DNA from: Asparagopsis taxiformis
Taxonomy: Eukaryota > Rhodophyta > Florideophyceae > Bonnemaisoniales > Bonnemaisoniaceae
Assembly: GCA_030407315.1 (NCBI GenBank)
Contig: JALQPE010002693.1
Span: 1-64,000 of the forward strand
Direction of reading: 5' to 3'
Length of the DNA stretch: 64,000 nt
Shown here: piece after piece, positions 331 to 57,358 of the stretch
Numbering within the stretch: the stretch's first letter is position 1
How the letters are laid out: every line of letters begins with the position of its first letter
Position numbers and translations under genes: made by a program
Notes under the pieces: model-generated
Told to the model about the DNA's origin: nothing
What the model saw: the letters and a program-made list of their open reading frames with translations, nothing else
Databases searched by the model: none

Positions 331-1039
331 GTTCTGTCGACTATACGGACCAGAAAATGTGACACGGGAGGTGAATACATCCTCCAAGTTGGACAAGATT
401 GATACCTATCCGCGAATATTGATATTTGATGCATAGGTTTCATGTCCTAAGATTAGCTTGAGCATTCTGACACATCATCTCGGGACGATTATTTCCATTT
501 GAATGTAACCTCGCGAGACTATACCCTTCAAAATTGCCATCGGAATATCAAAAAATTTTGGGCCCTAAGCCCACCAATTATGGTCACTCAATGCAGTCTA
601 TGTGAAAAACGTTTCTATTGGTTATGCGAAGGATAGAACAAAATATCTGTTGTCAAATATTGATATTTTCTAGACAGATAAACGACACCATTGGCCCGGC
701 TTTCTATTCCATACATCACTTCTATATAGTTTCTCATCTGTCTGATGACCATGTGATTGCCAGATGTGCCGAAAGTACTGCTCTCGAAATGCAGATTGAT
801 TGGGAGGAATGAAATCTGACTGGAATGCAACTTTACAAATTTTGAACTCGTAAAAGGTTCACTGACTTACTTATCATGGAACTCAACACTTGCGAGAAAC
901 TTCTTCATGTAGCAAAAGGAGGCTCCAATCATTCAATTATCCTGTCATTTTCGTTCCTCGTTTCTGGACAAAGGTTCAGCCTGGTCAAGTTCACAGCGCG
1001 AAACCACAGTTTTACTCAGAACTCGATTGTGACCAGAAG

Positions 1040-3908
1040 ATGAGTAAGCGATTCTTTCAAGCAAAGCACAAAATGAGCTCGACAGAACCTAGTTCTGGTC
1101 GGGAGGATGCATCCGTTAAAGCATTGTTCGCTGATATCATGGAAGGCTCGACAAAAAGCCGTGTAGATCCTCGATCTTGCATTCCGTTGACATCAATTCG
1201 TCAAATATCCCGCTCTGGTGTCTTGAGATTGAAGTCTATATTCAGTGGAGGTTCCACAGTTTCTTCGGGAAAGAGAGATGAAATCCCCATGGAGAATATT
1301 GGAGATGGATTTGTTGCTGGATCTGATAATGCTATTGTTGTAGAGCTAACGGGAGGTTTGAAAAGACATGTGTTGGACTTCTTCCGATCTAAACTCGGCT
1401 CGGACGGGGAACCTATCTCTGAATCCAAGCTGCAGAAAAAGCAGAAGATCGTTCTGTCTGGTACGGAGTAGTAGACGGAATGGACAGAATGACTGCTATT
1501 CGTGAATTATAGACGAAGATCCAGAACACTGGGAGTCTTTCTTGTGGCCTGTGACTATTCTGAAAGGCGGACACAGCTTCCAAACTTTGAAGTAATTAGG
1601 AAGGCATCAGAATAAGAAACATGATGCATCCTTTTACATCGAATCAACTTTCTATGATACTTTGGTCGGTTTAAGAGATGAAGCTGACGGATTGAAGACC
1701 ATGTCGAATGGTAGAGCTCCATCTGCGAAACAGATCACTTCAGCGTATGATGGTTGTACGCATCTGAAAGACAATACTATAAGACAAGCAGCAACAACAG
1801 CAGTTAGACTTCCACTAAGTGTAATACATGAGATCGGAGTAATCATGAACGAAGAGCACCCGGATTTGGCAGAACCAAGTTCTGCTGAATATAAACCGCT
1901 GGAAAAATCCATGAATATGCGATGCACCGATTGTCGAGTATACAGGAAATTCATCAACATAACTTCAATCAAGTCCGCGACAAAGTTCATGAGAGCCTCA
2001 GGTCCGGACGGAGAAAAGAATCAAATCAACACGCTTCACCGGCTGAGGGAAATTTCTAGAACGGACAAGTTCAAAGCAGCATCGTATAAGGTAACAGTAG
2101 AGCAGTTTGAGAGTGCTTGTAGTGCAATGAGGGAGGCTCGAAAGTTTGAAGCTCTTTTAGAAGATGATGAATGGCCGTCTGGAATGGAAGTAGTCAAGCA
2201 CAACTTACTCCGTACCACAAAATTTGATTGTGAAGTTACTGCCAATTTCGGGAATGATGGAGATGTTTTAGATTCTCTTCTTAAACAATATCGGAAAGTT
2301 TGTCCTGAGGCTGCACCCCTTAAAGGAAAAAAGTTTTCCGAGAATTTCATCAGGGAGAAAGAACTTCAGGCTAAAGACAATTGTACTGCCTTAGCTTCCG
2401 CGGATGATTCTCTTCCAATCGCAACTGAAGATATCACTAAAGGGGGTGAAGTTCCTGAAGATCAAGTTCCACATCCAGTGCCGAGCATCACTATAGAAGG
2501 AAAGGCACCAAGAACATTACCACAGGATCTAGGCGATATACCTGAATCAGAAGTCTTGACCAAACCTAATTCGGAACCAAATTCCGTACAACCGAAGCAG
2601 GTTAACAGGAATAATTCCGCTCCATCAAACGCTCCGAGTGCCAATTCTGTCCGACTGAATACGCGTCCAAAACGAGTTTCTTGTACTACAGAAGTGCTGG
2701 ATGAGAAAATTAACTATCTTGACGAAATGGGTGTTTCATGCCACCAGATGAAATGGCAAGATTTTGATAAGACCGTTTGGACAGATGGTGATGCTCTCTT
2801 CGATCTTATACTGACAGATCCACCGTATGGGACGCCTAAATCTCGTTCTTTGCGAAACACTTCTTACGATAGCTTCATAGATGACAAGGAAGTGAAAGAG
2901 ATATGTCAGTTTGCCAGGCGCGTCTTGAAGCCGGGAGGGTGGTTTCTTGCATTTGTTTCATTTCGAAACTTCGAACTTTTCTACAACGAACTTCACCGCA
3001 TCGGATTTGCTGGACCAGAATACCCATTCGTAATTATGAAGGATACCAGTACGATGCAAGCTCACAGAGGTGATCAGTTTCCTCAGAACGCTTGTGAATT
3101 TTCTGTCATTGCAAGGGCACCAGGAATTTCGAAAAGTGCATTCAAGCCAGATTTGAGGAGCCCTGACAACTTCGTTCCTTCAAAGACAAGCAGACGGTTT
3201 GCTGCTATGTCAGGTATACCCGTTTCAAAAGAAAAGCTCCTTTTGCCTGGCACGAAATCTCCCTTCCTAACAGAGGAGAAAAATGTGGGTCTGCTTGCTG
3301 AACTAATCAATACATTTTGTCCAGAACGGGGTTCTGTTTTGGATATTTACGGAGGTACTTTCACTACTGGAATAGCTTCGTTGCGAACTGCACGTTCATG
3401 TGTAGTAATCGAGTCAAGCGCATCTACATTTCGTCTTGCCCATGAGAGGCTACGTGCAGTGGCAGAGATACTGTACCGAAAAAGTCCATCCTCACACCAC
3501 GCAATGAAGAAGAGAAAGACGCGAGAGAATTCAAAAGGTGAAAGCAGTGGAGAAATCACGAAGATGATCGAAAAGAGGAGTACTATTGTTCAAAGTGGAA
3601 ACAATATGCTGAAAGTAGGGTACAGAGTTGAATTACTTCTTGATGGAATCACTATTGGTCATGCAAAGCTTCTGTCAGCTCCAGATAGTGACAGTGATTT
3701 ACATACTTCTATTCATAATGTTCCTCTCTCTGAGTACGAGAAAGATGGACAGAAGCGAGTTGCATGCTATTCCTTCAAATTTAAGGAGGATGCTGGCGAT
3801 AAAAAATACCCATATGGTTATGGAGGCATCGAGAAGCCTCCGGGAAACCTGAAGGGCTTAGCGGGAATATTCTCTTGGGACCTACACAGCATGAGATGTT
3901 CCAATTGA
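1040..3908 (+). pseudogene. ParB-like / DNA methyltransferase fusion protein, broken (E1)
   Basis: This is a broken homologue of the intact 957-residue protein at 51616-54489. The first block (1040-1471) matches the E2 N-terminus (VDPRSCIPLTSIRQ against VDPMACIPFTCVRD). The ParB-like core then continues in another frame as WYGVVDGMDRMTAI, where E2 has VDGAHRL, so the HR pair is changed to DR. A stop near 1510 and a TAA near 1591 follow. The long block 1662-3908 is open: it carries methyltransferase motif IV as LTDPPYGT and motif I as LDIYGGTFTTG, where E2 has CDPYAGTLTSG, so the SAM-binding DP pair is altered. The C-terminus differs from E2: it lacks the Cys/His cluster and ends in a stretch vaguely like the C-terminal domain of plant En/Spm-type proteins. 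Probably inactive. The start at 1040 is the first ATG in the leading frame; no upstream signal supports it. Confidence 0.72.
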
Positions 3909-4119
3909 GATAAAGATGTTTGCGAATCAGTACTATTTTTGTACATTGCACTACTGAAGAGCGATTCCAAACATCTAGAGAAGAATGGAATAAATCTTTT
4001 CACATCGATCATTACCGTTGTACAATATTTGGCGCGAAATTTGTTCTCTGTTTTTGTAAATTTGAATTATATGCTCTATCAGTACTTACAAATTTTCCCC
4101 GCCTTCTGTTCACCTCTCA

Positions 4120-6742
4120 ATGAAAGTGAGCGTTCGAAGTGAAAACCACTGCAAACTCATGGAGGACACATTTTGCCTCTCCGACACCAACCGCAAACTG
4201 ATTCACAAAAGTGCTGTCGGTATTCTTGCAACGCTGGGGATCGAAGCCGAAGCTGAACAATGCACCAGCGAGAACTCATTTCCGCATCATCCAAACCGAT
4301 CAAAATCATCTGCAAAACAAGGAATTCCATTGAGCAATGATATAATTCCAATTCGTTTCAACAGAAACCACCAAGAATATGTCAGAGGTTCATTGAATCG
4401 TTCGGAATCTGGAATTCTTTTGGAGCGTATTGACGGTTACGGAAATATTCCATTTCAATCACCGCTGGAAGTAAAACAAGCTTCTGTATCTGACTGCTTA
4501 TCTCCAAGTACTGCAACAGAAAGATATTCTGATTCTTGTGCGTCATCTTGTCCAATTGGAAAACCATCCATCTATCAGTTGGATACAAGTCCACGAAAAA
4601 ACCATGATAGCGACAAGAGGAGTAATGGAAATCGTGTGAGCAAAAGGATGATCGAGAAGAGGAAGCATGTCACGTCTTTATCTAATCTAGACATCAGAAA
4701 AAAGTTCTGTTGTAAGAAAAGGAGATGCTTTCGAAGTACAGACCCAACGTTTCTGAGGTCTGAAGTCAGCCGAGTACTTTATGGGGAAGGATTGATCGGC
4801 GAAGATACATGGAGAAATTATTCGATCCCAGCTCTAAAGTTTACCTTTTTCGCGGAAGGAAAGTCTGCTAAAAATTCCTGGAGTCTTCCTTCATGTTTTC
4901 TAGACACATGCAACGATCAGTGAAGATTTCATGGGCAAATGGAAGATCAGTCTGTTTTTCATCAGCTAAAAAAGACCCAGAGAGTCCACAGAGGGACTCT
5001 GTTATATGTTTCCTGGACAGATTTGCGGATTCTACAGCGGAGCGAATGCCTGACACCAACGAAAGACACCTTCCACTCTTTCAAAAGAAATCTGTCTATG
5101 AAGTTTTCCGAGAATAGTACACTGTTCTGCATGGATATCATAATATACCTTCTTTGGCATACTTCTACACAACTTGGAAGAAGTATTGCGGTGATATCAA
5201 AGTAAGAAGAATTCAGCGATTCACAAAATGTACTGATTGTGAGTATATTCGGGACGCTCTAGCCAAGTATGGAACAGACAAGAAGAGTACAGCTCCTCTT
5301 CTTGAACGGAGACGTTTGCATATAGAGATGGTTTCTCGGGAACGTAGAGAGTATCAGAAGAGGTGTGAGCTAGCTGCGTTGTACCCTTCGCAGTATACAT
5401 CACTTATCGTGGATGGTGCAGACCAGTCTGGATATGGGCTTCCCCATTTCACTGTCAATACAAAAGCGACAGTTGGGCATAGTTTGAAGGTCAGGCTGAT
5501 AGGTGTACTAGAGCATGGTGCTCGAAAACATCTCTCGTTGTACACCATGACCGCAGAATTTGAAACTGTTGCTAACCATATCGTGGAAGCGCTTCACAGA
5601 ACGCTTTCAAGCAAAGCATTAGGATCTAAACTACAGGGAAAACTTTTTTTGCAAGTTGACAATTGCACACGGGAGAACAAAAATTCATTCTTGTTCTGCT
5701 ACTTGGAATGCTTAGTGGCATGGGGTGTGTACGAAGAGATATTTGTGTCTTTCCTTCCTATAGGACACACTCACTCTGATATCGACCAAGCCTTCAGTTG
5801 TACATCAAGGAGACTGAAATTCAATAACGCAGCAACTATGGAGGATCTCCACGATGAACTGCGAAAGTCTTTCACGCCTGAACCATCTGTCTCCCGCATG
5901 CTACACATTATCAATTTCTCGGGTTTATGTAAGATGGAAAACTGTATTGGGAAGGTGAAACCTTTTTCAAAGTACCGCTACTTCAGATTCTTCAGAGATC
6001 CCGAAACAGAACGGGGTTCTGCCTTCTTCAAAACTGCTTGTGATGTCAAAATTCTTGTGATGACCAGTGGAGAAGCCTTCCAGCATTGACCAATGGTCTC
6101 AAAGGATTTACTCGATCTCCACCAAACCTGCACGCGGCACCCTGTAACTCTGTTGTCTGTCCACCAGATAAGGAAAAAATTCTTCTAAGGCTCAGATCAG
6201 AGGAGGTAAGGGTGAACAGTGTCGCTAAAATGAGATCACTTCATGCACTGGTTGCTCAAGTGTACAGAGACAGAGACGAACCACTACATTGGAACTTGGA
6301 AGAGTGCGTAGAGCTGAATGGAATTTACAGTAATCAGAGTTTTTCCAACCATGGGTTTGACGAGGATAAAGAAAATTTACAGGAAATGATGGCTCAAACA
6401 GACCTACCTTATTCTAGGAATCGATTTGTTGCTGTTAATGGATACGGATGTACGAAGGAAATGCCTTTCTGGCTAGGACAGATTATCGAATGTATCCAGG
6501 ATGGAAGTGGCGTGAAAAGAAATCTGTTCATAAGATGGTATGAAGTGTATGACAAAGGGGATGCATGGAGTGGTAAGTATCGTCCGGCGACAGTTGGAAG
6601 AGGAAAAAATATAGACCCTTGGCAAGGGAATATTTCTGTGGATACAGTAATAGCTGAGTTTGATTCTTTGACGAACAAGAAACTCAGAGCAGGAGTAGAG
6701 AAGGAAATTAGAGCAGGTTTAGTAGCATTGGGGAAATACTGA
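4120..6742 (+). pseudogene. DUF7869-type transposase, broken (E1)
   Basis: Homologous along its length to the intact E2 transposase (47389-49704). The N-terminal part (4120-4923) is in one frame. The next block shifts frame (RFADSTAERMPDTNERHLP against NLAESTSNRMPDTGEMHLP) and meets an in-frame TAG at 5115-5117. The core (5154-6089) keeps the likely catalytic sites: SLIVDGADQ, LQVDNCTRENKN and LPIGHTHSDIDQ. A further frameshift near 6086 leads to a C-terminal block ending in the FWLGQI...RWYEV region, which resembles a small chromatin-reader-like fold also present in E2. Two frameshifts and one stop mean this copy cannot make a full protein. It lies 211 bp downstream of the methyltransferase remnant on the same strand. 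Confidence 0.75.
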
Positions 6743-14094: not shown

Positions 14095-14770
14095 GAGTGC
14101 ACATGTATTTCCCTAGTGCATTTCATCTCCGCGGTAGTTGACCACCTTCCCGCTTCTTTTAACGCCGCCAGGCGACCGGGAGTGTCCTTCCGCCCACCGG
14201 GACAAGGCTACCGGCGGGGAGCTCTGTCGTTTTGGCACCCCCAACCGGTCAACCGATCCAACGCCCGTGGGCTTCTCAAACAGTCTCTCCCGATTGGCGC
14301 TGGTGGTACCACAGTTGAGGAATCCACTGTTTTGGTAACCTGGCGTGGAGGCGACCACAATTCCCCGCAGAGATCTATCGCGCTAAGTTCCCATTTAACC
14401 CTTAAGTTGGTTGAGGACTGCCATGGCCGATAGATCCCTCCCGCAGATTATATCTAGCCGTTCCGGACCCCGCTCTACCTCCCGCTACCGGGTTGGGAGA
14501 CAGGAGTCCTGACTCCGAGGAATCGATCCACCTGACACAGCCCTCGGGCTACCAGGATCGCACGAGAAATCCACCACGTGGAATCGTCGCTCTCACTCGT
14601 GAGTTCGAAGCCTTACCCCTATCTACTCATCCTCCTTGGAGGTACAATCTATCCTGCAGGGCTAAGGTCCAACACCGACTCACCCTCGCGAGTTTATCGC
14701 TTATGCGACTCTTCTCTGGCGCCCTTTCCGACCTCTTGAGAGGCATCTTTTCACTCCCTTTCGCCGAGCG
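14095..14770 (-). other. Likely degenerate upstream part of the gypsy element
   Basis: GC-rich sequence directly upstream of the RT frame, with only short broken frames. Its position fits the protease/gag-pol spacer of the same retroelement, but no protease motif could be read with certainty. Confidence 0.35.
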
Positions 14771-17841: not shown

Positions 17842-18409
17842 TAATCTCGCCGGCGAGTCTTCTAGTGGTAAAATTGGAGCTATTCGTTTATTTTTTCAAT
17901 TTAAACTACAGTGGTAAAAAGTGGCCTCATATGAGGTCATTTGACTTCATATGAGGCCACTTGTCCGATAGACACTAGAAGAACCTATCTAGCTGAGGGC
18001 CGTTCCCAGGAAAAATTTTGCACGGGAAATTTGTATGCACGTGCACGAAACGATGGAATAGAGACTTTTGATTGGCTCCATATGTTAATATGTTAAACTA
18101 CTTTTATTGAACTACTGAACTCCTGATCTCTGCATGCGCGCCACTTGTAAGTAGTACGATGGGGAATCACTGAGGTATCCTGAGTGCTAGCTTGTTCTTT
18201 TCGGTATCCTAGCATAGCGGAGGATGCCAAGGAGCGGCCGGATCCTCGATCGGACCACGAGTACCCGCCTGTACTTGACCCGATCATACCGGGTCAGAAG
18301 ATCCTCGTACGTTGTAAAGCTTCCAAACCTCACGTCTAACGCCCATCCCCAGCATTCTCTGTATCTAAGCAGATTGGCACAAGTTCAAACGGTCTACTCA
18401 TGCGCTCTA

Positions 18410-19945: not shown

Positions 19946-19975
19946 ACGTATACCGATATTTAGTAACACAACAGA

Positions 19976-21904: not shown

Positions 21905-22166
21905 TGCTCTGCATCTGCGACGAGAACGGCCGGCGCGGCTGTGCCTTGCGGCAGATTCAGTTCTGCTATCAGTGCGCGTAGACGCGTGTCGGATCGGCCT
22001 GCAATGGCTAGACGGAGATGCGCGTGCTGACGGATGGCTGAACATTCACTGATTTGGACGATCGATCGTCAGTTGGTACAGGCATTTTTCGAAAAATGCC
22101 TACACCAACTGGTCTGGAGAATACAAAGAAATTTCTACGAGAGTAATCTCTTTTACTTCAGTTCTA

Positions 22167-23381
22167 CTACACCTTTCGTAAATCCCATACCAAATCTCTC
22201 AGTTTGTCCCTTTTTATTGAACGAGCAGGTGACCTCGTTCTCGAAAAGGATTGAGATGATTGTCTATGTTCTTTGGCCTCCTCGTACCATGCCTGCACTT
22301 CTTCCACAGTACCTCCATGCGAATTCAATTCATTTCTTACAGAATCAAAACTCTCGCCTTGTTCAATACAAAGATTGTGTAGTTTCATGCATGCACATAC
22401 GACTCGTATGTTTCGACTTAGAGAAAATTCCAAACCACCATTCAGAACACGCCACCTAGCCACCAAGTGCCCGAACGCCTGCTCGATATGGACCCGGTGA
22501 GAGGAGAGAAAGAAGTTGAAATACTTTTCTTTGTCGTTGCACTGACTTCTTGCGTAAGGAGTAATCAACCAATTTCTGCATTCGTACGCCTCGTCTCCAC
22601 AAATCCAAAACTCTTCCTGCAAGCCTCCTTGAGATAGATAGGCTCCCAATTCTGACACAGAATGTGCTAAAGCATCGTGTGTGGCACCTACACACCGAGC
22701 GGAATAGCAGAGAAACCTGTAATTGGCGTCTACGAGTGCCTGTACTGGGATTGCGTAATACCCTTTTCTGCAAAAGTACGCTGCTGGTCGCTCGTTACAT
22801 CCTGGTTTTGCAATTTGTATGGCAATTCCATCGAGTGCACCGACACATCCGCTTAATGGATTTGTGAATCTTCTTGACAATTTAAATTCTATAGATGCCC
22901 TGTGCAGATCTTCCCAGCTTCTTGAAATTCCTGGAAGCCGAAGTGCTTCCATTATTGCTTGGCATGTGTCATGAAAAATGCGATAAATGGAACTAACAGA
23001 GACATTGAAACACAACCTTAGATCCAAATAACTGGCCCCAGCTAGCATCCGAAGTGTAATTGCCAGGCGGCTGTCTGCTGCAACCTTAGTTCCAGTGTTG
23101 TGAACGCAGCTTACACTTTCAAAAACTATTCCACCGAGAAGAAGCGACAATAACCGGTAAAAGGAATTCCGTGACAGTCTGTAAGTTCTTGTGAAGTCTT
23201 CTTCGTTTAGCATAGAACTTATGCAAATAAACTGCCTACACTGCCGCCTGCAGGGAGATTGCAGAAATGTTTCCTCTAGGAGAACCATCAAATACCCCAT
23301 AAAAACCACGATACCGAATTCATCATCTTCTGAAGCGAATACCTCGCTTATTTGACGGGTTAGAAGACTAGAACCACTCAT
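22167..23381 (-). CDS. PIF/Harbinger transposase (DDE_Tnp_4)
   Basis: A 404-residue frame from the ATG at 23381. The RNase H-like catalytic core is readable: GALDGIAIQIAKP (Asp near 184), CGDEAYECRNWLITPY (Asp near 263) and HRVHIEQAFGHLVARWRVL (Glu near 300), followed by CACMKLHNLCI, all in the order typical of Harbinger/IS5-type transposases. The N-terminal part has a helix-turn-helix-like stretch (RTYRLSRNSFYRLLSLLLGG). It moves the element by cut and paste. It is intact, has no frameshift and lies next to the right terminal repeat. Confidence 0.92.
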   Translation of the reverse strand: MSGSSLLTRQISEVFASEDDEFGIVVFMGYLMVLLEETFLQSPCRRQCRQFICISSMLNEEDFTRTYRLSRNSFYRLLSLLLGGIVFESVSCVHNTGTKVAADSRLAITLRMLAGASYLDLRLCFNVSVSSIYRIFHDTCQAIMEALRLPGISRSWEDLHRASIEFKLSRRFTNPLSGCVGALDGIAIQIAKPGCNERPAAYFCRKGYYAIPVQALVDANYRFLCYSARCVGATHDALAHSVSELGAYLSQGGLQEEFWICGDEAYECRNWLITPYARSQCNDKEKYFNFFLSSHRVHIEQAFGHLVARWRVLNGGLEFSLSRNIRVVCACMKLHNLCIEQGESFDSVRNELNSHGGTVEEVQAWYEEAKEHRQSSQSFSRTRSPARSIKRDKLRDLVWDLRKV

Positions 23382-24011
23382 GCGATTACGTTCGGAGTAC
23401 CACGCGCTGTTTTGATGTTCTATTTCTCTCCTGGTGCCCAATACCTCCAATATGTTGATCAGTGCATCGTCTATACGTGGGTATACGGAGCGTTACAGAT
23501 CCGGGAAGATCAAATTTGGAGTTCCCGGTTGTTCTTACCCGTTACAATCGGGTCAAGTAAAGGCGTGTAATAGTGGTCCACTCCAAGATTCGTCCGCTCC
23601 ATGGCATCCTCCGCTATGAGAGGTTACTGAAGAGAAAAAGCTAGCACTCGGGATACCTCAGTGATCCCCCATCGTATAACTTACAAGTGGCGCACATGCA
23701 GAGATTTTGAGTTTTAAACTTATCATCTCGGTACGTTTTCGGGCTGTGCAAGGTGTCTCACTCACTTCTACATGGAGCCAATCAAAAGTCTCTATTCCAT
23801 CGTTTCGTGCACGTGCATACAAATTTCCCGTGCAAAATTTTTCCTGGGAACGGCCCTGATACGTACTTGTATGTATCCACGTTTGAAAATAAATTTTTTT
23901 CAATTCGAAAAAATCGAAATGTCCTCTTCCACTACTTCAGAAACAATGGCGTGTCGTACACGCGAAGCTCGCGACAGCGCCTGGAGGGCCGTTGTTTAAT
24001 CTCAATCTTCG

Positions 24012-45992: not shown

Positions 45993-46102
45993 CACGGAAA
46001 AGGAGCTGTGGAGGTGTTCTGATCGTAGGGAGCAGTGCCAAGGCACACCTAAGGAGTAGTATGAGAGGTCCCAAACCTTTGTTGTAGCCTACTTCTACTC
46101 TG

Positions 46103-47313
46103 AACACAGTGAGCACCAAAATCAGAATATTTATTTTAGAACAGAATTATGTGCACAGTATTCCACGGCCATATTTTGCCATGTGTCAGTCCTGTACTCC
46201 GCTATCATACTAATGAATGATGGATACCATACATACACTGCAGTGTATCATTGGGAGTACCATGTCTACGGTTCATGTGTTACACAGTGTGTATAACGGA
46301 CAAATAAAACATAACATTAGTTTTTAGATTGATTTTGATGGAACTTGCTGCAGGTGCTATTTACGTGGTGGAAAGCAGTCCATCCGAATGTGAGCTGGAG
46401 CAAAACCTAATGAGGGGATCGGCGTGTGCAGATGGACCAATTTGAATTGCATTAATGCGCAATTCAATATCTCCATTTAATTTGCGTGAAGCACTGACAT
46501 TGTTTGGAGATTGAAGAGGTCAGCAAGCGTCTGTGATGAGGCAGCTGTCAGCTAGCCAAATGGCTTAGTTGAAACTCCAGAAGAGCCAGGCGGACAAGCG
46601 GACTTCCTGACAGTATATTTGTTCAATCGAGCAGCTCTCGAAATGTTCTTTAATTTATAAGCAGGTGCACTATTGATTCCAAATTGAACCATAGTCCAAT
46701 GTACTGTACAGGAATTTGAAATTCCAAAGTTGTCTTTGAGCGTACGCTCGTGTTTTACGTGTCATCTGTGCAGTGAATTTGTATACATACCAGTCGTTGA
46801 CATATGGACATGTGTGAAGCACATATCACATCAAAGATAGATCTCAGCTATTGGGTCATTGGGCTGGAATTTTGAAATTAGGAACTTAATCCAAAATATG
46901 CACCGTGGAGGCGCCATCAACGCGATATGTGTGTATCTTCCTGTGATGGTGCTTTCTCAGATAGTCTGCTCAGGAGAGACACAAAGAGTTTTTGTAAGCG
47001 GAAGTCTTTCGATTTGACCCTGTATTGGTAAATCCAATTCTCAACTGCTCTACTCAAGCTTGCAACATACCGGCGCTGGTCACATTCTGCGATCTTCATA
47101 CGCGGTTGTATAATATTCTAAACTCCGATTGATGTTGGCGGTGCTAGACTGTATGTGCTTCATATCTAGCTGCGGTTATTCGTTCAAAAGCCGCCTGCTT
47201 ATTTATTATGACGAAGTATTCATATGGATAATTCCAATTCGTAAGCGGAGAGGAACTACATCTTACTTCTTTTTCAGCCTTATTAGAAGCCAAGTGGGTC
47301 GAATACACGAGGT
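46103..47313 (+). repeat. E2 left terminal inverted repeat (1,211 bp)
   Basis: Inverted copy of 55868-57078. Its inner end lies 75 bp from the transposase stop. Contains a 60-codon open frame reading outward on the minus strand (47099-46917) and a divergent frame beginning near 47132, both duplicated in the other arm. Confidence 0.92.
46917..47099 (-). CDS. Small ORF in left TIR, identical to 56082-56264
   Basis: Sixty codons from ATG (MKIAECDQRRYVASLSRAVE...), basic and probably helical. The same peptide is encoded in both terminal repeats and reads outward. Identity between arms follows from repeat identity, so it does not by itself prove selection. No family was recognised, and it may be a chance frame. 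Confidence 0.25.
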   Translation of the reverse strand: MKIAECDQRRYVASLSRAVENWIYQYRVKSKDFRLQKLFVSLLSRLSEKAPSQEDTHISR

Positions 47314-47388
47314 AATTGTCGCTTACGGTGAATCAGGGGGCTATGATAGTATCCATTGTTTTTGTTGTGTACGACGATACACAATACC

Positions 47389-49704
47389 TCAAGAATGTGT
47401 TGGAACGTATGTGAGACTCTCTTTTATCATCTTCACATCTCCCATTGACAGAGTCTTATCCTTTCTTAGTCTCGTCAAACGTGCCAAGACTGTGTTCACA
47501 CTGATTTCAGAGGTCCATACATCTCCATTACTTTTCTTTGCCTCACTGTACTTTGACTTGAATGGGTCTTTCATGTTAGTATACGCCTGCAGCCATCTCA
47601 CACCCAGGAGCCATATTTCTCCGCTACTGTTAACCTGAACTTCAGTAACATATGAGAGCCAGAAGGGATTTGATGGCTCGGCTGTCCTGACAGCAATCAT
47701 GTCTCCAACGTTATAGCTGTAATTCGCCAGAGGATCAGAGGCATCTTCGTCGGATAAGTCTGTCTCGTTCATTTCTGCATTGCCATTCAGCAAAATTGCA
47801 AAATGCCTTCCATTTTGTTCTGGAGAGGTGTCGTGGTCCCAGTGCATATTGTCTGAGCGTGGAGTATATATTATATCTGCAAGCTTCTCCAGAGCTACCA
47901 TTCGATGGAAATCGGAAATGCGGGCTTCTGCCGCAGAGATTCCTCGACATACATCTCGGTAGTTATCTGGAGGGGAAGTTTCTGTGGGTGGTGCATCGAA
48001 AATATTGGGCGTAAACTTCAGAAATCCACCATCTATATTTGCATGGAGACCACTCGAATTACCATTGCAATCTCTCTTAACCGAGACTGTAGTCTGGAAT
48101 CGCTCGTGAATACTTCGTGGTTCACCTCGTTTCCTGCTGAATTGGAAGTATCTGAACTGAGAGAATGAAGAGACCTTCTCGAGACATTTTGATTCTTCAA
48201 ATAACCCTGATAGGTTTGCGATAGATTGCATGTGGGATACGGTTGGGGTAGGTGTGTAAGATTTCGATAGTTGCAAAATTAAATCTTCGAGGGTTATCGC
48301 GCTGTTCGTTCGTAGCCTTCGGGAAGTACAAGAGAAACACTGGTCAATGTCTTCGTGGGTATGGCCAACGGGTAAAAAAGAAACAAAGACTTCTTGGAAG
48401 ACACCTTTCGAAACTAGACACTCACAATACGCAAAAAAATAGCGGTTCTTGTTTTCCCGACCACAGTTGTCTAGCTGAACGTAAAGAGTATCCGGTAGCT
48501 TTCCTTTCGTAGCCTTCCGAGAGAGCCACCTATGCATGGCTTCAATTACATGATTTGATCCAGTATCAAACTCATCTGTCATTGTGAACAGAAATAGATG
48601 ATTCGTTGGACCATGTTCAAGAACTCCAGTTAGATGAATATTGATCTTATGACCTTTTTGAGTCGTCTTAGTCTCAAATGGCCAATGCGGGAGTGCGTAT
48701 GGAGCTTGTGTGGCACCATCAATGATTATGCTGGCAAACTTTCGTGGATGATGGCGAGCATTTTCTCTATTCCGGTAGTATTGAAGTCTCTCTTTCTCCA
48801 CGAAACGGTTGTGTTGGACCTTCAGCTTCCTCAGTTTGTCAGTCTTCTCACGATTTAATCCTGCATCAGCAAGCTGTTTCCTAAGATGTTCACAAATGTC
48901 GCACTTCGAAAACCGATGCACCTTTCTGCATTTGACAATCGGACAGAATGACTTCCAGACTTCAAGGAAGTATGTGTAGCTCGGGGGTGGAACTGTATTC
49001 TGCAGACAATCCACTTCTTTCCATTGAGAGCAGAATAGACTGTACACTTCTTTTTTCTCGAAGTAAGGGAGATGCATCTCTCCAGTGTCCGGCATCCTAT
49101 TAGAAGTACTTTCGGCGAGATTGTCAATATACACACGAATAACATCCCGCGTGCTCATTCCAGAACTTAGTCGAGGTAATCTAAAAAGAGATTTTGTACC
49201 TCTTGACTTACTTGTTTCTTTCACAGCGCACTGAAGGAAACGAGAGACTTTGAACCCTTTCTCGAGGAAGCTTGAACATACTGGCTTCCCGTCAAAATAG
49301 AACTTTTTAATGCTTCCTTTCTTTCCATTTATCATTCTCAGCATTGATATGAGCGCATTCTTTCTTTCGAATTGGTTCATTAGTAGGAACCGCCGACGTT
49401 GAGCGAGCAGAAATGACTCGTCTACAGAAGCAAAACACCTGAACCTCTTGCAGCACTCCCATGAAGAAACGGAAAGATCGGAACATTCTTCTGCAAGCTT
49501 GATTCTTCTTGTCCTTAGTTCCGTAAGTTCGAGGTCTAATTTTCTCTTCAGCAAGAGAGGCTTCCGCATGTATACTTGCTCAGTGTACTCAGCTTGAGAA
49601 TGGTCACGAGATACAACCGATTGTATTCGTTGAAGGACCCGCTCAGTATATGAATTGGGAGAGTATGTTTGCCCTTCTGGGAAGTATTCATCTCTCGTGC
49701 TCAT
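47389..49704 (-). CDS. DUF7869-type transposase (intact)
   Basis: A 771-residue frame from the ATG at 49704; a GTG seven codons earlier is also open. The central region matches the family I know as DUF7869 and has an RNase H-like spacing of acidic residues: FASIIIDGATQ (Asp near 329), LYVQLDNCGRENKNRYF (Asp near 412) and SFLPVGHTHEDIDQCFS (His/Glu/Asp near 448-454). A Cys/His motif (HRFSKCDICEHL) precedes the core. The C-terminus has a small chromatin-reader-like block (VGDMIAVR...NPFWLSYV...VRWLQAY). Being the only transposase-like gene in a complete, recently moved element with target duplication, it is the likely mobilising enzyme; catalysis is inferred, not shown. A broken homologue lies in E1. 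It diverges from the methyltransferase gene across 1.9 kb that presumably holds both promoters. Confidence 0.82.
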   Translation of the reverse strand: MSTRDEYFPEGQTYSPNSYTERVLQRIQSVVSRDHSQAEYTEQVYMRKPLLLKRKLDLELTELRTRRIKLAEECSDLSVSSWECCKRFRCFASVDESFLLAQRRRFLLMNQFERKNALISMLRMINGKKGSIKKFYFDGKPVCSSFLEKGFKVSRFLQCAVKETSKSRGTKSLFRLPRLSSGMSTRDVIRVYIDNLAESTSNRMPDTGEMHLPYFEKKEVYSLFCSQWKEVDCLQNTVPPPSYTYFLEVWKSFCPIVKCRKVHRFSKCDICEHLRKQLADAGLNREKTDKLRKLKVQHNRFVEKERLQYYRNRENARHHPRKFASIIIDGATQAPYALPHWPFETKTTQKGHKINIHLTGVLEHGPTNHLFLFTMTDEFDTGSNHVIEAMHRWLSRKATKGKLPDTLYVQLDNCGRENKNRYFFAYCECLVSKGVFQEVFVSFLPVGHTHEDIDQCFSCTSRRLRTNSAITLEDLILQLSKSYTPTPTVSHMQSIANLSGLFEESKCLEKVSSFSQFRYFQFSRKRGEPRSIHERFQTTVSVKRDCNGNSSGLHANIDGGFLKFTPNIFDAPPTETSPPDNYRDVCRGISAAEARISDFHRMVALEKLADIIYTPRSDNMHWDHDTSPEQNGRHFAILLNGNAEMNETDLSDEDASDPLANYSYNVGDMIAVRTAEPSNPFWLSYVTEVQVNSSGEIWLLGVRWLQAYTNMKDPFKSKYSEAKKSNGDVWTSEISVNTVLARLTRLRKDKTLSMGDVKMIKESLTYVPTHS

Positions 49705-51615
49705 CGTTGGATCATTGAAGAACACCTTTCAGCAATGGTCTAGAGCGAAGTTGATGATTTTCCAAAAAGGTACAGGAAAAGTACCGAAGTGGAGGGTGCT
49801 GTTGAGTACAGAGAGCTCTCTGAAAGTCACAGCTTCGATCGAAACGTGATCTCTCCTTATATATATTTGAAGGAATGCATGCACCTTATCTCACCTCCAC
49901 AAAATAATGAACTGGCATTTTGCAGCTACATGATCAATCTACATCTTTTGGTTTTCTGCGCGCCAGGCCGTGGGATTACCGTGCCCAAGCTAACTGAGAG
50001 ATACCGTTACCCATGGGAATGTGTCACATGCATGTGACTCATTTTGCTATGTCTCACTGCGATGTAGGCATACTTTTCATCTGAAAATGAATGAGATTAG
50101 GGTCTTCGTAGTGACGTGTAACTATACAGCTAGGAGCGATTCCATGTTTCACTGGAGTTCATTTACTGTTCGTCCGTGTGGAGTAATCCTTGTCGTGAAG
50201 CAACGACATGAACGGTAGAATAGTCGAGATTTATGATGACAAAGCAAGAAGAAAATGTTCTCGTATCACATTCACACACGAATGAGAAGGCCGAAATTTA
50301 GACGTTATGAAACTTCTGGCCACCGATAACGAAGTAACGATATGAGAGAGTTTTTAATGTAAAATAATGTTTCGCGATGTCACTGGAGCTTGAGATGTAA
50401 CGTTACATAAGACAAATAACCAGAATCCTTCTCATTCGCATGCATGAACACGTTACATCAACTATAAGCTGGAGGGCGGATGTAGATGGGATCATTCCTG
50501 TCAGGAATGGTTGCTATTCTGATGCTTCACGTCACATTGCACTTTGCAATTCTTATATGACATCCTGAGTGGAAAGTTGCAGGAGGCTGGCCCTAGACGA
50601 GCAAAATTTTACGGCGTCGTGAAACTTCACAGTAAGTATGATGCGATACGTGTCTCAATGGAGACAACGTGTTTAATCTCAAGCCTTCGCTTGTGAGGGT
50701 ACCTGCTGATGATGGAATGGACCGTTCACCATGTGTCTAGCGTATTCAGCGAGTTCCGGTACTATTTTCAGGCTCACTGTCGGGGCTCTAGATCCGTGAA
50801 ACGATTTCATCGTATCCAGATGGGCCAGGTTTTATACGTGGAACAAAGTGACTACACACGACCCAGTGTATAACAGAGATTCTGCTTTCACAGCTTGGTC
50901 TGGATCATGCGTGTCTGGAGAGAGGACATCTCTGACCCATGGTTTTTGTCACGTTGATGATATAGTAAATCAGTATTCAGAAACATCATCAATCACCTTT
51001 GAAGCTTTTCATGCTTTCAGAATAAGTCATTCATTGCAGATATTGAAGAAGATATGATATCTCTAGTGACTTGAACCAGATTCAACGTATTCCTATAAAA
51101 TTTTAGATAATTTCGCACAGGAAGATGATTTCTGTTCCTGATATTCATCTACATCTCATTCCGTGAATGTCCAGAACAAGCGATGAGACTAATCTCTACA
51201 ACAAAATCGGAATCACGTAGAGATCGCTCGAGAGCAAGCTCAACAGCTAGCTCATTTATTCAATACAGCCAAAGCTCATTGACATCTCTGCATGCTACAA
51301 AAGGGACCAATGCACGTGGGATATGAAGCCAAACTATCATAGCAGTGGAAGTTACCAGCATCTGGAAGAATAACTTTTCTGTCCTCGCAACCACGTTCAA
51401 GATTTGACCTCATTCTACTTCAAATTTCTGCCCAGAACTCACAAGTACCGATCCTTCGGTGGGATCCCACACGAGCGAGATAACATTACAGGAATATAAT
51501 TGAAACGAACGTTCTAGAGCTGAAGTGACTTTTCAGACTTGCATCAAAGCCAAGATCGAATATCTGCAGGGATTATCAACTTTAGATCAGCATATTGAGC
51601 GAAGGGAAGTCACAA
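49705..51615. promoter_or_regulatory. Divergent intergenic region between the E2 genes
   Basis: 1.9 kb with no supported ORF, lying between two divergently transcribed genes. It should carry both promoters. No specific motif could be assigned. Confidence 0.4.
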
Positions 51616-54489
51616 ATGGATTCTGCTAAAGAAAGGTTTTCCTCGCTTATGTCTGGTGCTGAAATAGTTTCAGTAGATCCGATGGCCTGTATTCCGTTTA
51701 CTTGTGTAAGAGACACTGTGAACGGATGCGTGCAAGAGTTGGCTCGCATATTCGATGATGAAGAGGACGGAGGAGTAACCTCAGGGGGCTCAATGTGTTA
51801 CGTCATTCGTTTGGAGGGAGCCTTCTCTTCAGTTCCTCTACAATATTTCAGGAAGGAGCTTGCTAGTGAGGACGCTGCTCAGAAAGAAGTATCGAAAAGA
51901 AAGGAGTGGTTTGGAATAGTAGATGGCGCCCATAGGCTGATAGCGCTCCAGAAGCTCATCTGTTCTAGACCAGAGAAATGGAGTGGTTTCAACCTATCTG
52001 TTACGAAGCTCCGAAGTACCTCTTCTTTGGAAACTTTTCGTGCGTTTGCGAGAAGCTGCAACTTTAAAAACGTTGACGACTTTATAGTTGAACAAACACA
52101 GTTCGATATTCTGCGAAGCCTAAAGCAAGACTATGCAACATTGTCTGCTAGGCTGAACAGGAGTGCCAAAGCAAGTGAGGTCGCAGTGTTTTACTGTGGG
52201 GGGAAGAAAGGCTGCACATCCACTATCAAACAATTGGCAGCGTGCGCTCTTCGTTTACCTCAGTCCGTCATCGACACAGTTGGTATAATTGTCAACGAAG
52301 AGAATAAGGAACTTGCTACATCACAACAGAAGAAAAAAGCCCACATTTCTAAGATTCCCGTGGGTGTTGACTCAAGGGTCTATAGGAATATCATTTCTAC
52401 TTCTACTTTCAAGCAGTCCACTGCATTTATGAATGCATCCGGAAACATTGGTGAGCAACTACAAATCAATACCCTTTGGAGGATAAGAGATCTTGCACAG
52501 TTCAATGGGTATGGTGCGACAAAACACACTGTTGTTACTGAACAGTACCTCGCCGCCAAGTCTGCTTTATTCGAAATTGAAAAGTTTGAGAAGTTGATGG
52601 GAACGAAAATCTGGCCGAAGGAGATGGAATTGATGCGTCGGAACGCTGAGCGTACTCAAATTTTTGACAGGGAAATCGCTTCCAATCATGGAAACGACTT
52701 GGATCCACTGCCTTCTTTCTATGAGGCATACAAGATGGCATGCCCTGCAGTTGCCCACCAGAATCTAATGAAATTCAAGGGGCAAGAGCATTGCCACAGG
52801 AACTCAAACGATCTATCGAACGGATCAAACGACTTTCAAAATGAGGAAGAAAGCTGCCGCACCAAAAAAAACCATGACACGAAAGAAGTCTCAGATTTAA
52901 TTCATCGATCCATGGAAAATCTCTCAACGACAGATCCTACAATTTCGGTTGACGACTCTGAGGAGCTCTCTGAGCCTTTACACATCGATGAAGATAATAA
53001 TAATGAAGAGAGTAATCCCCAAGTACCCAAAGGGGGAAAACTGGACAATGAAGATGCATCTAAGGCAGATCCGACAGAATGTTTGCAGAGCTTCAATATT
53101 CAAGTTTTTGGAATGAAATGGCAGGAGTTTGAGCAGAAGAGCGAGGAATACGAAAAACTTAAAGGAAATGTATCAACCATCCTCACAGATCCACCTTACT
53201 CTATTCAGATGAAAACTGCATCTGGAGCTGGAAGTGGATTCGACGATTTCGTTGACGATAAGGAAATCAACGAGTTTGCCCAATTTTGTCGGAGACTTCT
53301 TGTTCCAGAGGGATCCATTGTATTGTTCACTAGTTGGCAATGGTTTCATAAGTGGTTTGATGCTTTCCAGAGGAATGGATTCCAGGTACTACATTATCCG
53401 CTCATCATTTCGAAGGATACTTCTACACTCAGAAGAAATGGGAGGCTGAAAATGCCACAGTGCGCATGCGATTTTGCTCTTTTGGCTTACTCCCCAGCAT
53501 TAGCTCTCTCTGGGAAAAGTATCCCAAGAGTAGTGGACTTTGAATTGCCTTATCAACTAATCAAATGTACCCACAGCCGGAAATTCAATATAATCGACAA
53601 CGTCCCTGTACCGTCTGCGAAGCTTAAGTACGATGGAACGAGGAAACTTGTTCGTGTCGAGGAGAAGAATGTCGACTTACTCGTAGAGCTTCTAACTTCT
53701 TTTTGTCCTCCTGGTGGACTTGTCTGTGATCCGTATGCTGGCACGCTCACATCTGGAATTGCGTGCCTTCGAACATCACGACCAGCTGTTTTAATAGAGA
53801 AAGACAAAGATTGTGCGGCAGTTGCAATGAAGCGTCTTGGTGCAATAGCTAATAATGCACTCCTGGATAAATCTAGAACGGCCGATCTGAGACCCATGTC
53901 ACAAGCTGAGGCATGTGTGGGCCTCATGCCCCTCACATCAGACACTCTCAGTGACAAGGAAGCCGATACTCCTCTATGTACACCGGCATATGTCGATCCA
54001 CCCTCCCCAGCTCCCGGTCTTTCGAAGTGTGCCGGGAGCAAGGAGACTGTACTTTCCAGAAGTAATGCTTCCCAGGAAATTCTCCCCGAAAGAAAAGGCC
54101 CCCAAGACGTTTCAAAAGAGTTTCCGGGAACTGTCAATGACTCAGCTTTGGTCCAGGGAACGAGGAAGAGCAAGAGACTCAAACTTTCCAGGAGAAAAGA
54201 GAAGTACTTCGATCATAGTGGTGATATCAAAATGACAAGCTCCGGGCAAGTTCATTCTTCTACTCCTGATGGTAATGAAAAAGGTAGACGCACAAATTGT
54301 GTGCTAAAATCAGACTGTGTTGTGGCAATGAGTCTCAGACCTGGTGAAACCTCTATAACATCCCATAAGTGCACAGAGTGCCATCAGCCAGTGCACAGTA
54401 TTTGCGAGTATGGGAGAAGAGTTGCTGGGAAGACAGACAGAGAGGAGATATGGGCCTGTTCCAAAGAATGCTTCAATAAGCAGGGTTGA
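51616..54489 (+). CDS. ParB-like / beta-class DNA methyltransferase / Cys-His fusion (intact)
   Basis: A 957-residue frame from the ATG at 51616. The N-terminal domain has ParB-like features: VDPMACIPF near the start, and WFGIVDGAHRLIAL (about residues 98-111), like the GxHR signature of ParB/Srx-type domains. A helical middle follows, then an acidic linker. The methyltransferase core has motif IV TDPPYS (about 524-528) before motif I CDPYAGTLTSG (about 703-713); this order defines the beta class. DPPY rather than SPPY favours N6-adenine as target, with N4-cytosine possible. The C-terminus (about 915-957) is a Cys/His cluster (KCTECHQPVHSIC, WACSKECF), also present in E3. In bacteria, ParB-domain methylases are known in phages and mobile elements; here the gene sits in a eukaryotic transposon. 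Possible roles are marking element DNA or evading host silencing. Function is inferred from motifs. Confidence 0.85.
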   Translation: MDSAKERFSSLMSGAEIVSVDPMACIPFTCVRDTVNGCVQELARIFDDEEDGGVTSGGSMCYVIRLEGAFSSVPLQYFRKELASEDAAQKEVSKRKEWFGIVDGAHRLIALQKLICSRPEKWSGFNLSVTKLRSTSSLETFRAFARSCNFKNVDDFIVEQTQFDILRSLKQDYATLSARLNRSAKASEVAVFYCGGKKGCTSTIKQLAACALRLPQSVIDTVGIIVNEENKELATSQQKKKAHISKIPVGVDSRVYRNIISTSTFKQSTAFMNASGNIGEQLQINTLWRIRDLAQFNGYGATKHTVVTEQYLAAKSALFEIEKFEKLMGTKIWPKEMELMRRNAERTQIFDREIASNHGNDLDPLPSFYEAYKMACPAVAHQNLMKFKGQEHCHRNSNDLSNGSNDFQNEEESCRTKKNHDTKEVSDLIHRSMENLSTTDPTISVDDSEELSEPLHIDEDNNNEESNPQVPKGGKLDNEDASKADPTECLQSFNIQVFGMKWQEFEQKSEEYEKLKGNVSTILTDPPYSIQMKTASGAGSGFDDFVDDKEINEFAQFCRRLLVPEGSIVLFTSWQWFHKWFDAFQRNGFQVLHYPLIISKDTSTLRRNGRLKMPQCACDFALLAYSPALALSGKSIPRVVDFELPYQLIKCTHSRKFNIIDNVPVPSAKLKYDGTRKLVRVEEKNVDLLVELLTSFCPPGGLVCDPYAGTLTSGIACLRTSRPAVLIEKDKDCAAVAMKRLGAIANNALLDKSRTADLRPMSQAEACVGLMPLTSDTLSDKEADTPLCTPAYVDPPSPAPGLSKCAGSKETVLSRSNASQEILPERKGPQDVSKEFPGTVNDSALVQGTRKSKRLKLSRRKEKYFDHSGDIKMTSSGQVHSSTPDGNEKGRRTNCVLKSDCVVAMSLRPGETSITSHKCTECHQPVHSICEYGRRVAGKTDREEIWACSKECFNKQG

Positions 54490-55867
54490 ACCTTCAAGAG
54501 CTCGAGAAGCATTTCCACTCCGGTATGATGCTTTTCGTCATGCGCAAATTATGAATTGAAGTGATTACTGTTTTGATGGTACCCCTTCATAGCCGCTTAT
54601 TCATGACAATGGGGCTTCGTTCTTTTTTAGTGCACCTTACCCCGACAATGACCTGGTATCTGCTACAACAATTAGGAGGGATGAATTCCAGTCCTCCATT
54701 CTATCTCAGAGAAGGTTGAGAATAAACCGGTCAAGTTGTTGAAAAGCTCCAGATACGATTGTGCTATGATTCCAATCCTTTCCAGTGCAGTGATGTGATG
54801 CACGTGTAGACGCGCAGAGCTTCTTTTTGGCGGATTCTTAATGTACAACCATGAGTATTCGGTAGAAGCGGTATCGTATCGATTCATGAACAAGATTAGT
54901 CGTATTGGAGCTTGATATAGTTTTTGATAGGAACTCAGCTGAAGTCCATGATTTGCACAAATGTGCACCATGTGTATCACATGACATTCTCACTATTATG
55001 CTTTAGCACGCAGCACCTTCGTAGCAGTTGGTATACATCGTATAGATATATTCTATACATGCCTCCTATGAGTACACATTAATGTTTAGATGGCTGCACG
55101 ATTTCGTAGATCTGTCACTGTCGCAAACACCCTGCATGATCCGGACGTCCTCGTTGGCGAGGACGCATGCTTGCAAATTTGAATAGCAGATTTTGGGAAT
55201 TCAGCTGAGATCTGCAAATATGCGTATGATATTCTCACCATTATTCTGCATCATGCTGCATCATGAAGCATCCTCGCCACGGTTGGTATGTATCGCATAG
55301 ATAAATAGCATGCATGTATCCTACGTATGCGTGCGACTGTCATTATTAATGGAGATCTCCACAACTGCACACTGACACATGTGTCAATAGTGCTGTGTAT
55401 ATAACGAAAAATGGATGGAATGAACACTGTGATGACTACTTATTATAGTAAGCAGTCTAGTTCTAGCACTATCCCTTGTGCATGATACGGACTTGCCGAT
55501 TGTTCTATTGATGATCAAGTATACCTACATGTGTGAATAGAAAATCTTCAATCTTTCGGCGATGTTCAGGGTCACTGACACACGAGTACTGCGCACAAAC
55601 TGTGTCGCTGTCAGTGACCGTGTACAAAATTCATTCATAATAAAATGAAACAGAGCGGGGAATTCATGTGCAAGCCATTCATAAATAGCCCGTGTTGAGC
55701 AATGAAGTCCAGATGTCAACCATTCGAGAATAAATCTCCATAGCGATCGAACACACAATGTGACTGCGTATAGAAGCACACCCGCACATACGAGATCATG
55801 TCCAGCATGAATGGGCATACGTTCAATCATATCCAGAACTATGTATCCTGTTTGACAGCATGCTGTA
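54490..55867. other. E2 right internal non-coding region
   Basis: Between the methyltransferase stop and the right inverted repeat. Contains a diverged duplication: GTTGGTATACATCGTATAGAT near 55025 and GTTGGTATGTATCGCATAGAT near 55283, each after a GCATG/GCACG-type segment. A 175-codon minus-strand frame (56052-55525) crosses the repeat boundary but has no recognised domain. Confidence 0.4.
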
Positions 55868-57078
55868 ACCTCGTGTATTCGACCCACTTGGCTTCTAATA
55901 AGGCTGAAAAAGAAGTAAGATGTAGTTCCTCTCCGCTTACGAATTGGAATTATCCATATGAATACTTCGTCATAATAAATAAGCAGGCGGCTTTTGAACG
56001 AATAACCGCAGCTAGATATGAAGCACATACAGTCTAGCACCGCCAACATCAATCGGAGTTTAGAATATTATACAACCGCGTATGAAGATCGCAGAATGTG
56101 ACCAGCGCCGGTATGTTGCAAGCTTGAGTAGAGCAGTTGAGAATTGGATTTACCAATACAGGGTCAAATCGAAAGACTTCCGCTTACAAAAACTCTTTGT
56201 GTCTCTCCTGAGCAGACTATCTGAGAAAGCACCATCACAGGAAGATACACACATATCGCGTTGATGGCGCCTCCACGGTGCATATTTTGGATTAAGTTCC
56301 TAATTTCAAAATTCCAGCCCAATGACCCAATAGCTGAGATCTATCTTTGATGTGATATGTGCTTCACACATGTCCATATGTCAACGACTGGTATGTATAC
56401 AAATTCACTGCACAGATGACACGTAAAACACGAGCGTACGCTCAAAGACAACTTTGGAATTTCAAATTCCTGTACAGTACATTGGACTATGGTTCAATTT
56501 GGAATCAATAGTGCACCTGCTTATAAATTAAAGAACATTTCGAGAGCTGCTCGATTGAACAAATATACTGTCAGGAAGTCCGCTTGTCCGCCTGGCTCTT
56601 CTGGAGTTTCAACTAAGCCATTTGGCTAGCTGACAGCTGCCTCATCACAGACGCTTGCTGACCTCTTCAATCTCCAAACAATGTCAGTGCTTCACGCAAA
56701 TTAAATGGAGATATTGAATTGCGCATTAATGCAATTCAAATTGGTCCATCTGCACACGCCGATCCCCTCATTAGGTTTTGCTCCAGCTCACATTCGGATG
56801 GACTGCTTTCCACCACGTAAATAGCACCTGCAGCAAGTTCCATCAAAATCAATCTAAAAACTAATGTTATGTTTTATTTGTCCGTTATACACACTGTGTA
56901 ACACATGAACCGTAGACATGGTACTCCCAATGATACACTGCAGTGTATGTATGGTATCCATCATTCATTAGTATGATAGCGGAGTACAGGACTGACACAT
57001 GGCAAAATATGGCCGTGGAATACTGTGCACATAATTCTGTTCTAAAATAAATATTCTGATTTTGGTGCTCACTGTGTT
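55868..57078 (-). repeat. E2 right terminal inverted repeat (1,211 bp)
   Basis: Inverted copy of 46103-47313; ends with GGTGCTCACTGTGTT next to the TCTG duplication. Contains the outward 60-codon frame at 56082-56264. Confidence 0.92.
56082..56264 (+). CDS. Small ORF in right TIR, identical to 46917-47099
   Basis: Same 60-residue basic peptide as in the left arm, starting at an ATG. A divergent frame begins 30 bp upstream on the other strand. No supporting homology is known to me. Confidence 0.25.
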   Translation: MKIAECDQRRYVASLSRAVENWIYQYRVKSKDFRLQKLFVSLLSRLSEKAPSQEDTHISR

Positions 57079-57358
57079 TCTGCTTTAAAAGATGATAGAA
57101 CTGTAACTGTAACTAAAAGCTAGACAAGTATCTACGAGAAGTGAGGTGTACATGGAGGAAGGGACAGGACAGGTATATTTCAGTATCACGCTCTCTTTGT
57201 TCAGCTCAGGTTGGCTGGGAGAGTTGATGTATAGAATGAAAAAAGAGACGGTTTATAAAGACATATCGTAAAGTTATGGAATAGTCAACTGGTTGCAGCA
57301 AGCAACAGAATCGTTGAAATACGAGAGATCAACTAATGTCTACGGTAACTAACAGATT

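What the first reader, a model, noticed from the sequence alone, without database searches (positions are those of the whole stretch)
46103..57078. Complete, young eukaryotic transposon carrying an intact ParB-methyltransferase gene
Seen: TCTG duplications, 1,211 bp terminal inverted repeats of equal length without visible differences, an intact DUF7869-type frame and an intact ParB-like/DPPY methyltransferase frame. Known: methylases with ParB-like domains occur in phages and bacterial mobile elements; large eukaryotic DNA transposons rarely carry a DNA methyltransferase. Inference: a self-mobile element whose DNA-modification gene serves its own spread, its regulation or its escape from silencing.
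Basis: partly seen in the sequence, partly recalled or inferred. Interest (0 to 1): 0.93.

Follow-up and report, generated by a model that had tools for sequence, protein, structure and literature searches.

The report
Jumping gene carrying DNA-marking enzyme
A young transposon in an unnamed eukaryote carries, next to its transposase, its own DNA methyltransferase, and the two genes appear to have evolved together for a long time, which makes it a natural case for asking why a mobile element would write its own DNA mark.

Summary
The element is real and young: 1,211-bp terminal inverted repeats (100% identical), 4-bp TCTG duplications, six insertion sites with both ends in the assembly, and empty sites for two of them. 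The DUF7869 protein is, by predicted structure, a DDE-type transposase (RNase H core, Asp329/Asp412/Asp452-454) with a C-terminal BAH-like fold. The partner is a bacterial-type amino-methyltransferase, probably N6-adenine. The ParB label rests on one motif; my searches do not support more. The pairing recurs: a decayed second pair lies at window 0.9-6.7 kb, other pairs sit divergently in this genome, and six database contigs appear, by exactly equal lengths, to carry both genes. The two proteins' distances agree (Mantel r 0.82, 5 of 40,320 permutations), so the partnership looks old. The genome search listed 150 N6/N4-methyltransferase places, some perhaps on duplicated contigs. I find it most likely that the enzyme marks the element's own DNA to support transposition or resist silencing; that step is inferred. 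Precedents (DNMTs in retrotransposons, Dam in DIRS, TET in fungal DNA transposons, methylases in viral Mariner) make it a new variant of a known kind.

The parts
46099..46102 (.). target site duplication TCTG, left copy
   Evidence: sequence; other copies have other perfect 4-bp duplications; empty sites
46103..47313 (+). terminal inverted repeat, left arm, 1,211 nt
   Evidence: 100% complementary to the right arm
47389..49704 (-). DUF7869 protein, 771 aa: predicted DDE-type transposase
   Evidence: PF25273 1.9e-55; AlphaFold2 pLDDT 82.8; structural matches
48247..48786 (-). RNase H-like catalytic core, residues about 307-486, with D329 (48718-48720), D412 (48469-48471), D452/D454 (48343-48351)
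47434..47736 (-). BAH-like domain, residues about 657-757
49705..51615 (.). 1.9-kb region between the two divergent genes, presumed promoters
   Evidence: position only; no promoter test made
51616..54489 (+). DNA methyltransferase gene, 957 aa in one uninterrupted frame
   Evidence: open frame; relatives P0001-P0003 of similar length at 49-52% identity
51919..51948 (+). motif VDGAHRLIAL, the only ParB-like feature
   Evidence: 16-column alignment to nine phage methylases, probability 0.8%
53170..53829 (+). N6_N4_Mtase domain with DPPY (53188-53199) before DPYAGT (53728-53745)
   Evidence: PF01555 48.9 bits against a cut-off of 26.7; profile comparison with phage methylases 6.5e-16
54289..54474 (+). 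C-terminal cysteine-rich (zinc-finger-like) region
   Evidence: cysteines shared by 4 of 4 aligned proteins; Znf_SCAND3 only below cut-off
55868..57078 (-). terminal inverted repeat, right arm, 1,211 nt
57079..57082 (.). target site duplication TCTG, right copy
866..6742 (+). E1: decayed second pair on one strand, methyltransferase pieces (866-1471, 1596-3908) followed by DUF7869 pieces (5118-6089, 6044-6742); outer limits not found
   Evidence: against E2: DUF7869 pieces 50% over 281 aa and 28% over 230 positions; methylase pieces 33% over 607 positions and 30% over 98

Best explanation
E2 is an autonomous, recently active DNA transposon of about 11 kb that makes 4-bp target duplications. Its DUF7869 protein is a DDE-type transposase that cuts and joins the element ends; its BAH-like domain probably lets it bind chromatin. 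The divergent second gene encodes a bacterial-type amino-methyltransferase, most likely N6-adenine-specific, with a conserved basic patch (SKRLK) and a cysteine-rich tail that would suit nuclear DNA or chromatin binding. The partnership is old. Most likely the enzyme methylates adenines in the element's own DNA, ends included, and this keeps copies accessible to their own transposase or hides them from host silencing. Shown: structure, copies, empty sites, domain content. Well supported: co-occurrence and co-divergence. Inferred: adenine as the base, self-DNA as the target, and the benefit.
For: TIRs and duplications; empty sites; predicted transposase fold and conserved Asp residues; BAH-like fold; methylase domain, with structural neighbours among bacterial DNA methylases; the pair recurs: window E1, 8 divergent pairs among the two top-150 lists, six database contigs of exactly equal length against a mean of 0.14 at other offsets; congruent distances over 8 pairs, r 0.82; E2 and L064 methylases keep 53% identity (dN 0.445) while synonymous sites are saturated.
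Confidence: 0.55

Rival explanations
1. Passenger cargo: the methyltransferase hitchhikes inside the element and plays no part in transposition or silencing.
For: Weak constraint between recent copies; 27 of 32 listed DUF7869 contigs of at least 7 kb show no equal-length methylase contig.
Against: Co-divergence with the transposase over 8 pairs, 49-53% identity kept along the length, and recurrence in several element families.
Confidence: 0.2
2. Replication-timing control, as recalled for Dam and IS10/Tn10: methylation of the ends, hemimethylated after replication, limits transposase binding or expression to a short time window.
For: CcrM, an N6-adenine enzyme, is among the structural neighbours; methylation of transposon ends can block transposase binding (passage in PMC3627910).
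Against: No short palindrome stands out clearly in the repeats under a Markov model.
Confidence: 0.15
3. Restriction-modification or addiction: the methylase protects DNA against a nuclease and its loss harms the host.
For: Defence-library matches include bacterial type II methylases; viral Mariner elements pair a methylase with an endonuclease (PMC3627910, passages).
Against: Apart from the two genes, no frame over 210 aa lies in the element; the shorter frames were not searched.
Confidence: 0.04
4. Assembly or contamination artefact: bacterial or viral DNA misassembled into a eukaryotic contig.
For: Contig C2589 carries the left flank of C2588 and a flank of C417, and C2590 the same flank of C417, so contigs are misjoined or duplicated at the repeat.
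Against: Five further insertion sites with both ends on separate contigs (four with fully read perfect duplications, one cut by the contig end) and two sets of empty sites.
Confidence: 0.02

Closest known systems
DNMT-carrying retrotransposons of Symbiodinium and charophytes (PMC5890265; abstract start and passages seen)
   Same: Mobile elements that encode a DNA methyltransferase, in hundreds of copies in Symbiodinium
   Different: Retrotransposons with C5-cytosine enzymes; here a DNA transposon with a bacterial-type amino-methyltransferase
DIRS retrotransposons with Dam-like N6-adenine methylases (mentioned in PMC5890265, passage)
   Same: Adenine-type enzyme in a eukaryotic element
   Different: Retroelement; I made no direct sequence comparison
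TET/JBP-carrying fungal DNA transposons, KDZ and others (PMC12730594; abstract start and passages seen)
   Same: DNA transposons with an enzyme acting on DNA modification beside the transposase
   Different: Eraser rather than writer; 7-8 bp duplications in the Kyakuja and Zisupton/Dileera passages against 4 bp here
Mariner elements in viruses with endonuclease and methylase (PMC3627910; passages seen)
   Same: DNA transposon with a methylase gene
   Different: Mariner transposase, an extra endonuclease, other methylase domains
Sola2 transposons (PMC3627910 passages)
   Same: 4-bp target duplications, large transposase
   Different: Reported examples have 12-21 bp TIRs and AT-rich duplications; here 1,211-bp TIRs and mixed duplications; transposase homology not tested
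Phage DNA methylases of about 400 aa, some annotated ParB-like
   Same: Same methylase domain, profile match 98.6%
   Different: Their N-terminal half does not align beyond 16 columns

Membership tests
Cut-and-paste DDE DNA transposon | Terminal inverted repeats and fixed-length target duplication at several sites | tested here: met
Cut-and-paste DDE DNA transposon | RNase H-like catalytic core with conserved acidic residues | tested here: met
   predicted structure only:
Cut-and-paste DDE DNA transposon | Excision and integration activity | not testable with these tools
   near-identical copies imply recent movement
DUF7869 (PF25273) | Score over the curated cut-off | tested here: met
   187.9 bits against 26
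N6_N4_Mtase (PF01555), beta-class order | Score over cut-off; DPPY motif ahead of the SAM motif | tested here: met
   48.9 bits against 26.7; motif order; class and motif names from recall
N6-adenine methyltransferase | Methylates N6 of adenine | not testable with these tools
   structural neighbours only
ParB-like domain | Profile or fold match to ParB | tested here: inconclusive
   no Pfam hit, none in phages, 16-column match at 0.8% to nine phage methylases, of which three are annotated ParB-like and the one scanned has no Pfam ParB hit itself; model too weak to judge the fold
BAH domain | Fold match | tested here: met
   predicted structure:
BAH domain | Pfam BAH profile match | tested here: not met
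   no BAH hit in the protein; 3 matches to PF01426 in the genome, on C1618, C2015 and C1401, not at E2 copies
Kyakuja/Dileera/Zisupton | 7-8 bp target duplications | tested here: not met
   4 bp at five fully read sites; reference values from passages
Sola2 | Homology to Sola2 transposase | not tested
   no reference sequences at hand

The most novel reading that the evidence does not exclude
DUF7869 defines an unrecognised eukaryotic transposon superfamily whose transposase reads chromatin through a BAH domain and whose ancient partner writes N6-methyladenine, so that in this organism the 6mA landscape is largely written by transposons for their own use.
Probability: 0.25. Interest if true: 0.92.

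Novelty: new variant of a known kind. Interest (0 to 1): 0.73.

Why it matters
Whether transposons use self-encoded DNA modification to evade or exploit host chromatin is an open question. Here an apparently intact, young element carries writer and transposase together, the partnership looks old, and its genome lists 150 places with this methylase domain, so single-molecule sequencing of one organism could test it directly. It also gives DUF7869, a domain named in 0 papers of the library searched, a probable function.

Tried and rejected
ParB domain: Pfam at E up to 10, PHROGs, phage tblastn, PDB sequences and profile comparison gave only one motif; I no longer call it a ParB fusion. The phage set used is itself only partly annotated as ParB. 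Virus origin: a pattern-based scan found no relative of either protein in viral contigs. Methylation motif: CATG and TGCA exceed single-base expectation in non-coding E2 (2.34 and 2.22 fold; flank 1.03 and 1.42), but not clearly under the Markov model. Structure of the methylase: poor model; Foldseek on it is quoted only for the methylase domain. E1 ends: no long inverted repeat found. DUF7869 tree: carriers are not one clade; the tree's no-methylase group held 26 rows because I left out P0060 by oversight, the recount gives 27. Organism: not identified; the window has no tRNA. Literature: 9 of 10 searches used; no listed title or abstract start described N6/N4 methylases in eukaryotic DNA transposons; the listed papers were not all opened.

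Protein search of the own genome did not complete, nor was the topoisomerase search. So the number of E2-type methylase genes, and how many of the 79 methylase places that share 65.6 bits sit beside a DUF7869 gene, are unknown.

Full report
Observation. The element spans 46103-57078 (10,976 bp). Its arms of 1,211 nt are 100% complementary and TCTG stands on both sides. Two long frames face away from each other: a 771-aa DUF7869 protein on the minus strand and a 957-aa methyltransferase on the plus strand.

Copies. The first 298 bases of the repeat match 20 of 20 scored places in the 141-Mb own assembly, and the first 29 bases match 18 places, with 0 for the reversed control. Seven contigs hold both ends. 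Five sites have fully read perfect 4-bp duplications: TCTG (window), ATAT (C2382), TAGC (C471), GTCC (C417), CTGT (C847). C2588 shows GCGG on the left and GCG before its contig ends. C2589 has different letters on its two sides, and its flanks equal those of C2588 and C417, so I count it as a misjoined contig; C2590, a partial copy, shares its right flank. That leaves six insertion sites with both ends. C1839, C2764, C2951 and C629 hold truncated copies. Identity to the window is 99.96-100% for C2382 and C417 and 98.9-99.2% for C471 outside a deletion. TIR arms within copies differ by 0, 4, 0 and 1 mismatches in C2382, C471, C417 and C847, and by 2 gap columns in C2588. Both genes align without gap or new stop in C2382, C847, C2589 and C2951; C471 has a stop and C417 a one-base gap in the methylase; C2588 has gaps in the transposase gene; C2590, C1839, C2764 and C629 have gaps, a stop or missing parts in one or both.

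Empty sites. The window's flanks, joined with one TCTG, match 40 of 40 scored places over all 210 bases at 95-98%, out of 202 first-look candidates: E2 landed in a repeat family. The C2382 site matches 4 places over all 200 bases at 97-99%, plus its own two halves.

Methyltransferase. PF01555 scores 48.9 bits. Six PDB sequences match the profile: two named adenine-specific (DpnA), CcrM, two named only methyltransferase and one putative modification methylase. The full model is poor (pLDDT 35.9), yet its 21 Foldseek matches at E <= 0.001 are chains of M1.HpyAVI, CcrM, TTHA0409 and M.BceJIV; the titles of CcrM and M.BceJIV state N6-adenine. An Adineta N4-cytosine enzyme follows at 6.3e-3, so N4 is not excluded. 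The first 395 residues find nothing convincing.

Recurrence. The full-length query finds three relatives at 49-50% identity; one, P0003, is nearly the product of a family in this genome (L062, L064), so these records may be from this species or close kin. A profile search, which scored only the 7,994 candidates sharing most words, finds 13 more, among them four of about 500 aa without the Pfam domain and one (P0136) covered over 6% only. Of these 16 proteins, 6 lie on contigs whose length equals exactly that of a contig with one of the 120 listed DUF7869 proteins (606 found), against a mean of 0.14 at other offsets (maximum 3). I infer same contig; names were not shown. In this genome, 9 methylase/DUF7869 domain pairs lie within 9 kb (2.9 expected on a single circle, a rough model), 8 of them divergent, 7 of these at 4.26-4.34 kb. 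Four of those 7 were read in part and belong to one family; neighbouring contigs may repeat one place. Both lists were cut at 150. E1 at 866-6742 is a decayed pair on one strand.

Co-divergence. Over 8 pairs (E2, E1 and the six contigs) the distance matrices correlate at r 0.82; 5 of 40,320 permutations reach it. The E1 rows are fragments, and pair membership rests on the contig lengths. Carriers are scattered on a tree of 121 DUF7869 proteins, needing 5 changes (shuffled mean 6.5; 35 of 500 as low). Of 32 listed contigs of at least 7 kb, 27 show no equal-length methylase contig. Old association with repeated loss, or repeated exchange, both fit; absence on a contig is weak evidence.

Selection. 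E2 and L064 methylases: 53% identity, dN 0.445, dS saturated, hence long-term constraint. Recent pairs: ratio 0.75 (L059/L061) and 0.21 (L062/L064, 7 changes); E2 copies show little constraint.

Scale. PF01555 gave 150 scored matches, all listed over the cut-off, of 2,605 first-look candidates. They lie on 143 contigs, 17 pairs of which have neighbouring numbers, so some places may be duplicates; 79 of the 150 share 65.6 bits. E2's own methylase is not in that list, so it is incomplete. One of the 79 (L081) is 29% identical to the E2 methylase over 228 positions, with a DPPF variant. PF25273 gave 150 scored of 502 candidates and none in 14 control genomes.

Known work. Passages of PMC5890265, PMC3627910 and PMC12730594 show DNA-modifying enzymes in other elements. 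DUF7869 is in 0 papers of the library. Hence a new variant of a known kind, with a transposase group that I did not find described under that name.

Mechanism. What the enzyme does for the element is inferred. Confidence: transposon with DDE-type transposase 0.95; amino-methyltransferase 0.95; adenine as base 0.75; old partnership 0.8; self-marking that aids transposition or anti-silencing 0.45.

Noticed in passing
window 17997-23856: Another element with inverted ends (86 nt identical, further 187 nt at 83%), apparent 3-bp TGA duplications read by eye, a DDE_Tnp_4 transposase frame (22167-23492) and a type IA topoisomerase frame (20777-21901, PF01131 4.7e-67): a Harbinger-like element (name recalled) that seems to carry a topoisomerase.
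   Followed up: partly
window 866-6742: Decayed second methylase/DUF7869 pair, same strand rather than divergent.
   Followed up: partly
G000:C44:70843-71514 (L081) and 78 further rows with the same 65.6 bits: A highly amplified methylase group; the one read has DPPF instead of DPPY and is 29% identical to E2's; its transposase partner is unknown.
   Followed up: partly
G000 C2764 and C629 copies: Both truncated E2 copies break at the same element position (6243) and continue into the same sequence, so they are related derivatives or nested insertions.
   Followed up: no
G000 C471 copy: Lost about 0.4 kb of the region between the genes (element 4820-5229).
   Followed up: no
window 12751-14112 and 15652-17895: Reverse transcriptase/RNase H frame and a DDE_Tnp_1_7 (piggyBac-type, recalled) transposase frame: the window is crowded with elements.
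   Followed up: no
window 46103-47313, 49705-51615, 54490-55867: CATG and TGCA are over 2-fold more frequent than base composition predicts in E2 non-coding DNA; weak under a Markov model.
   Followed up: partly
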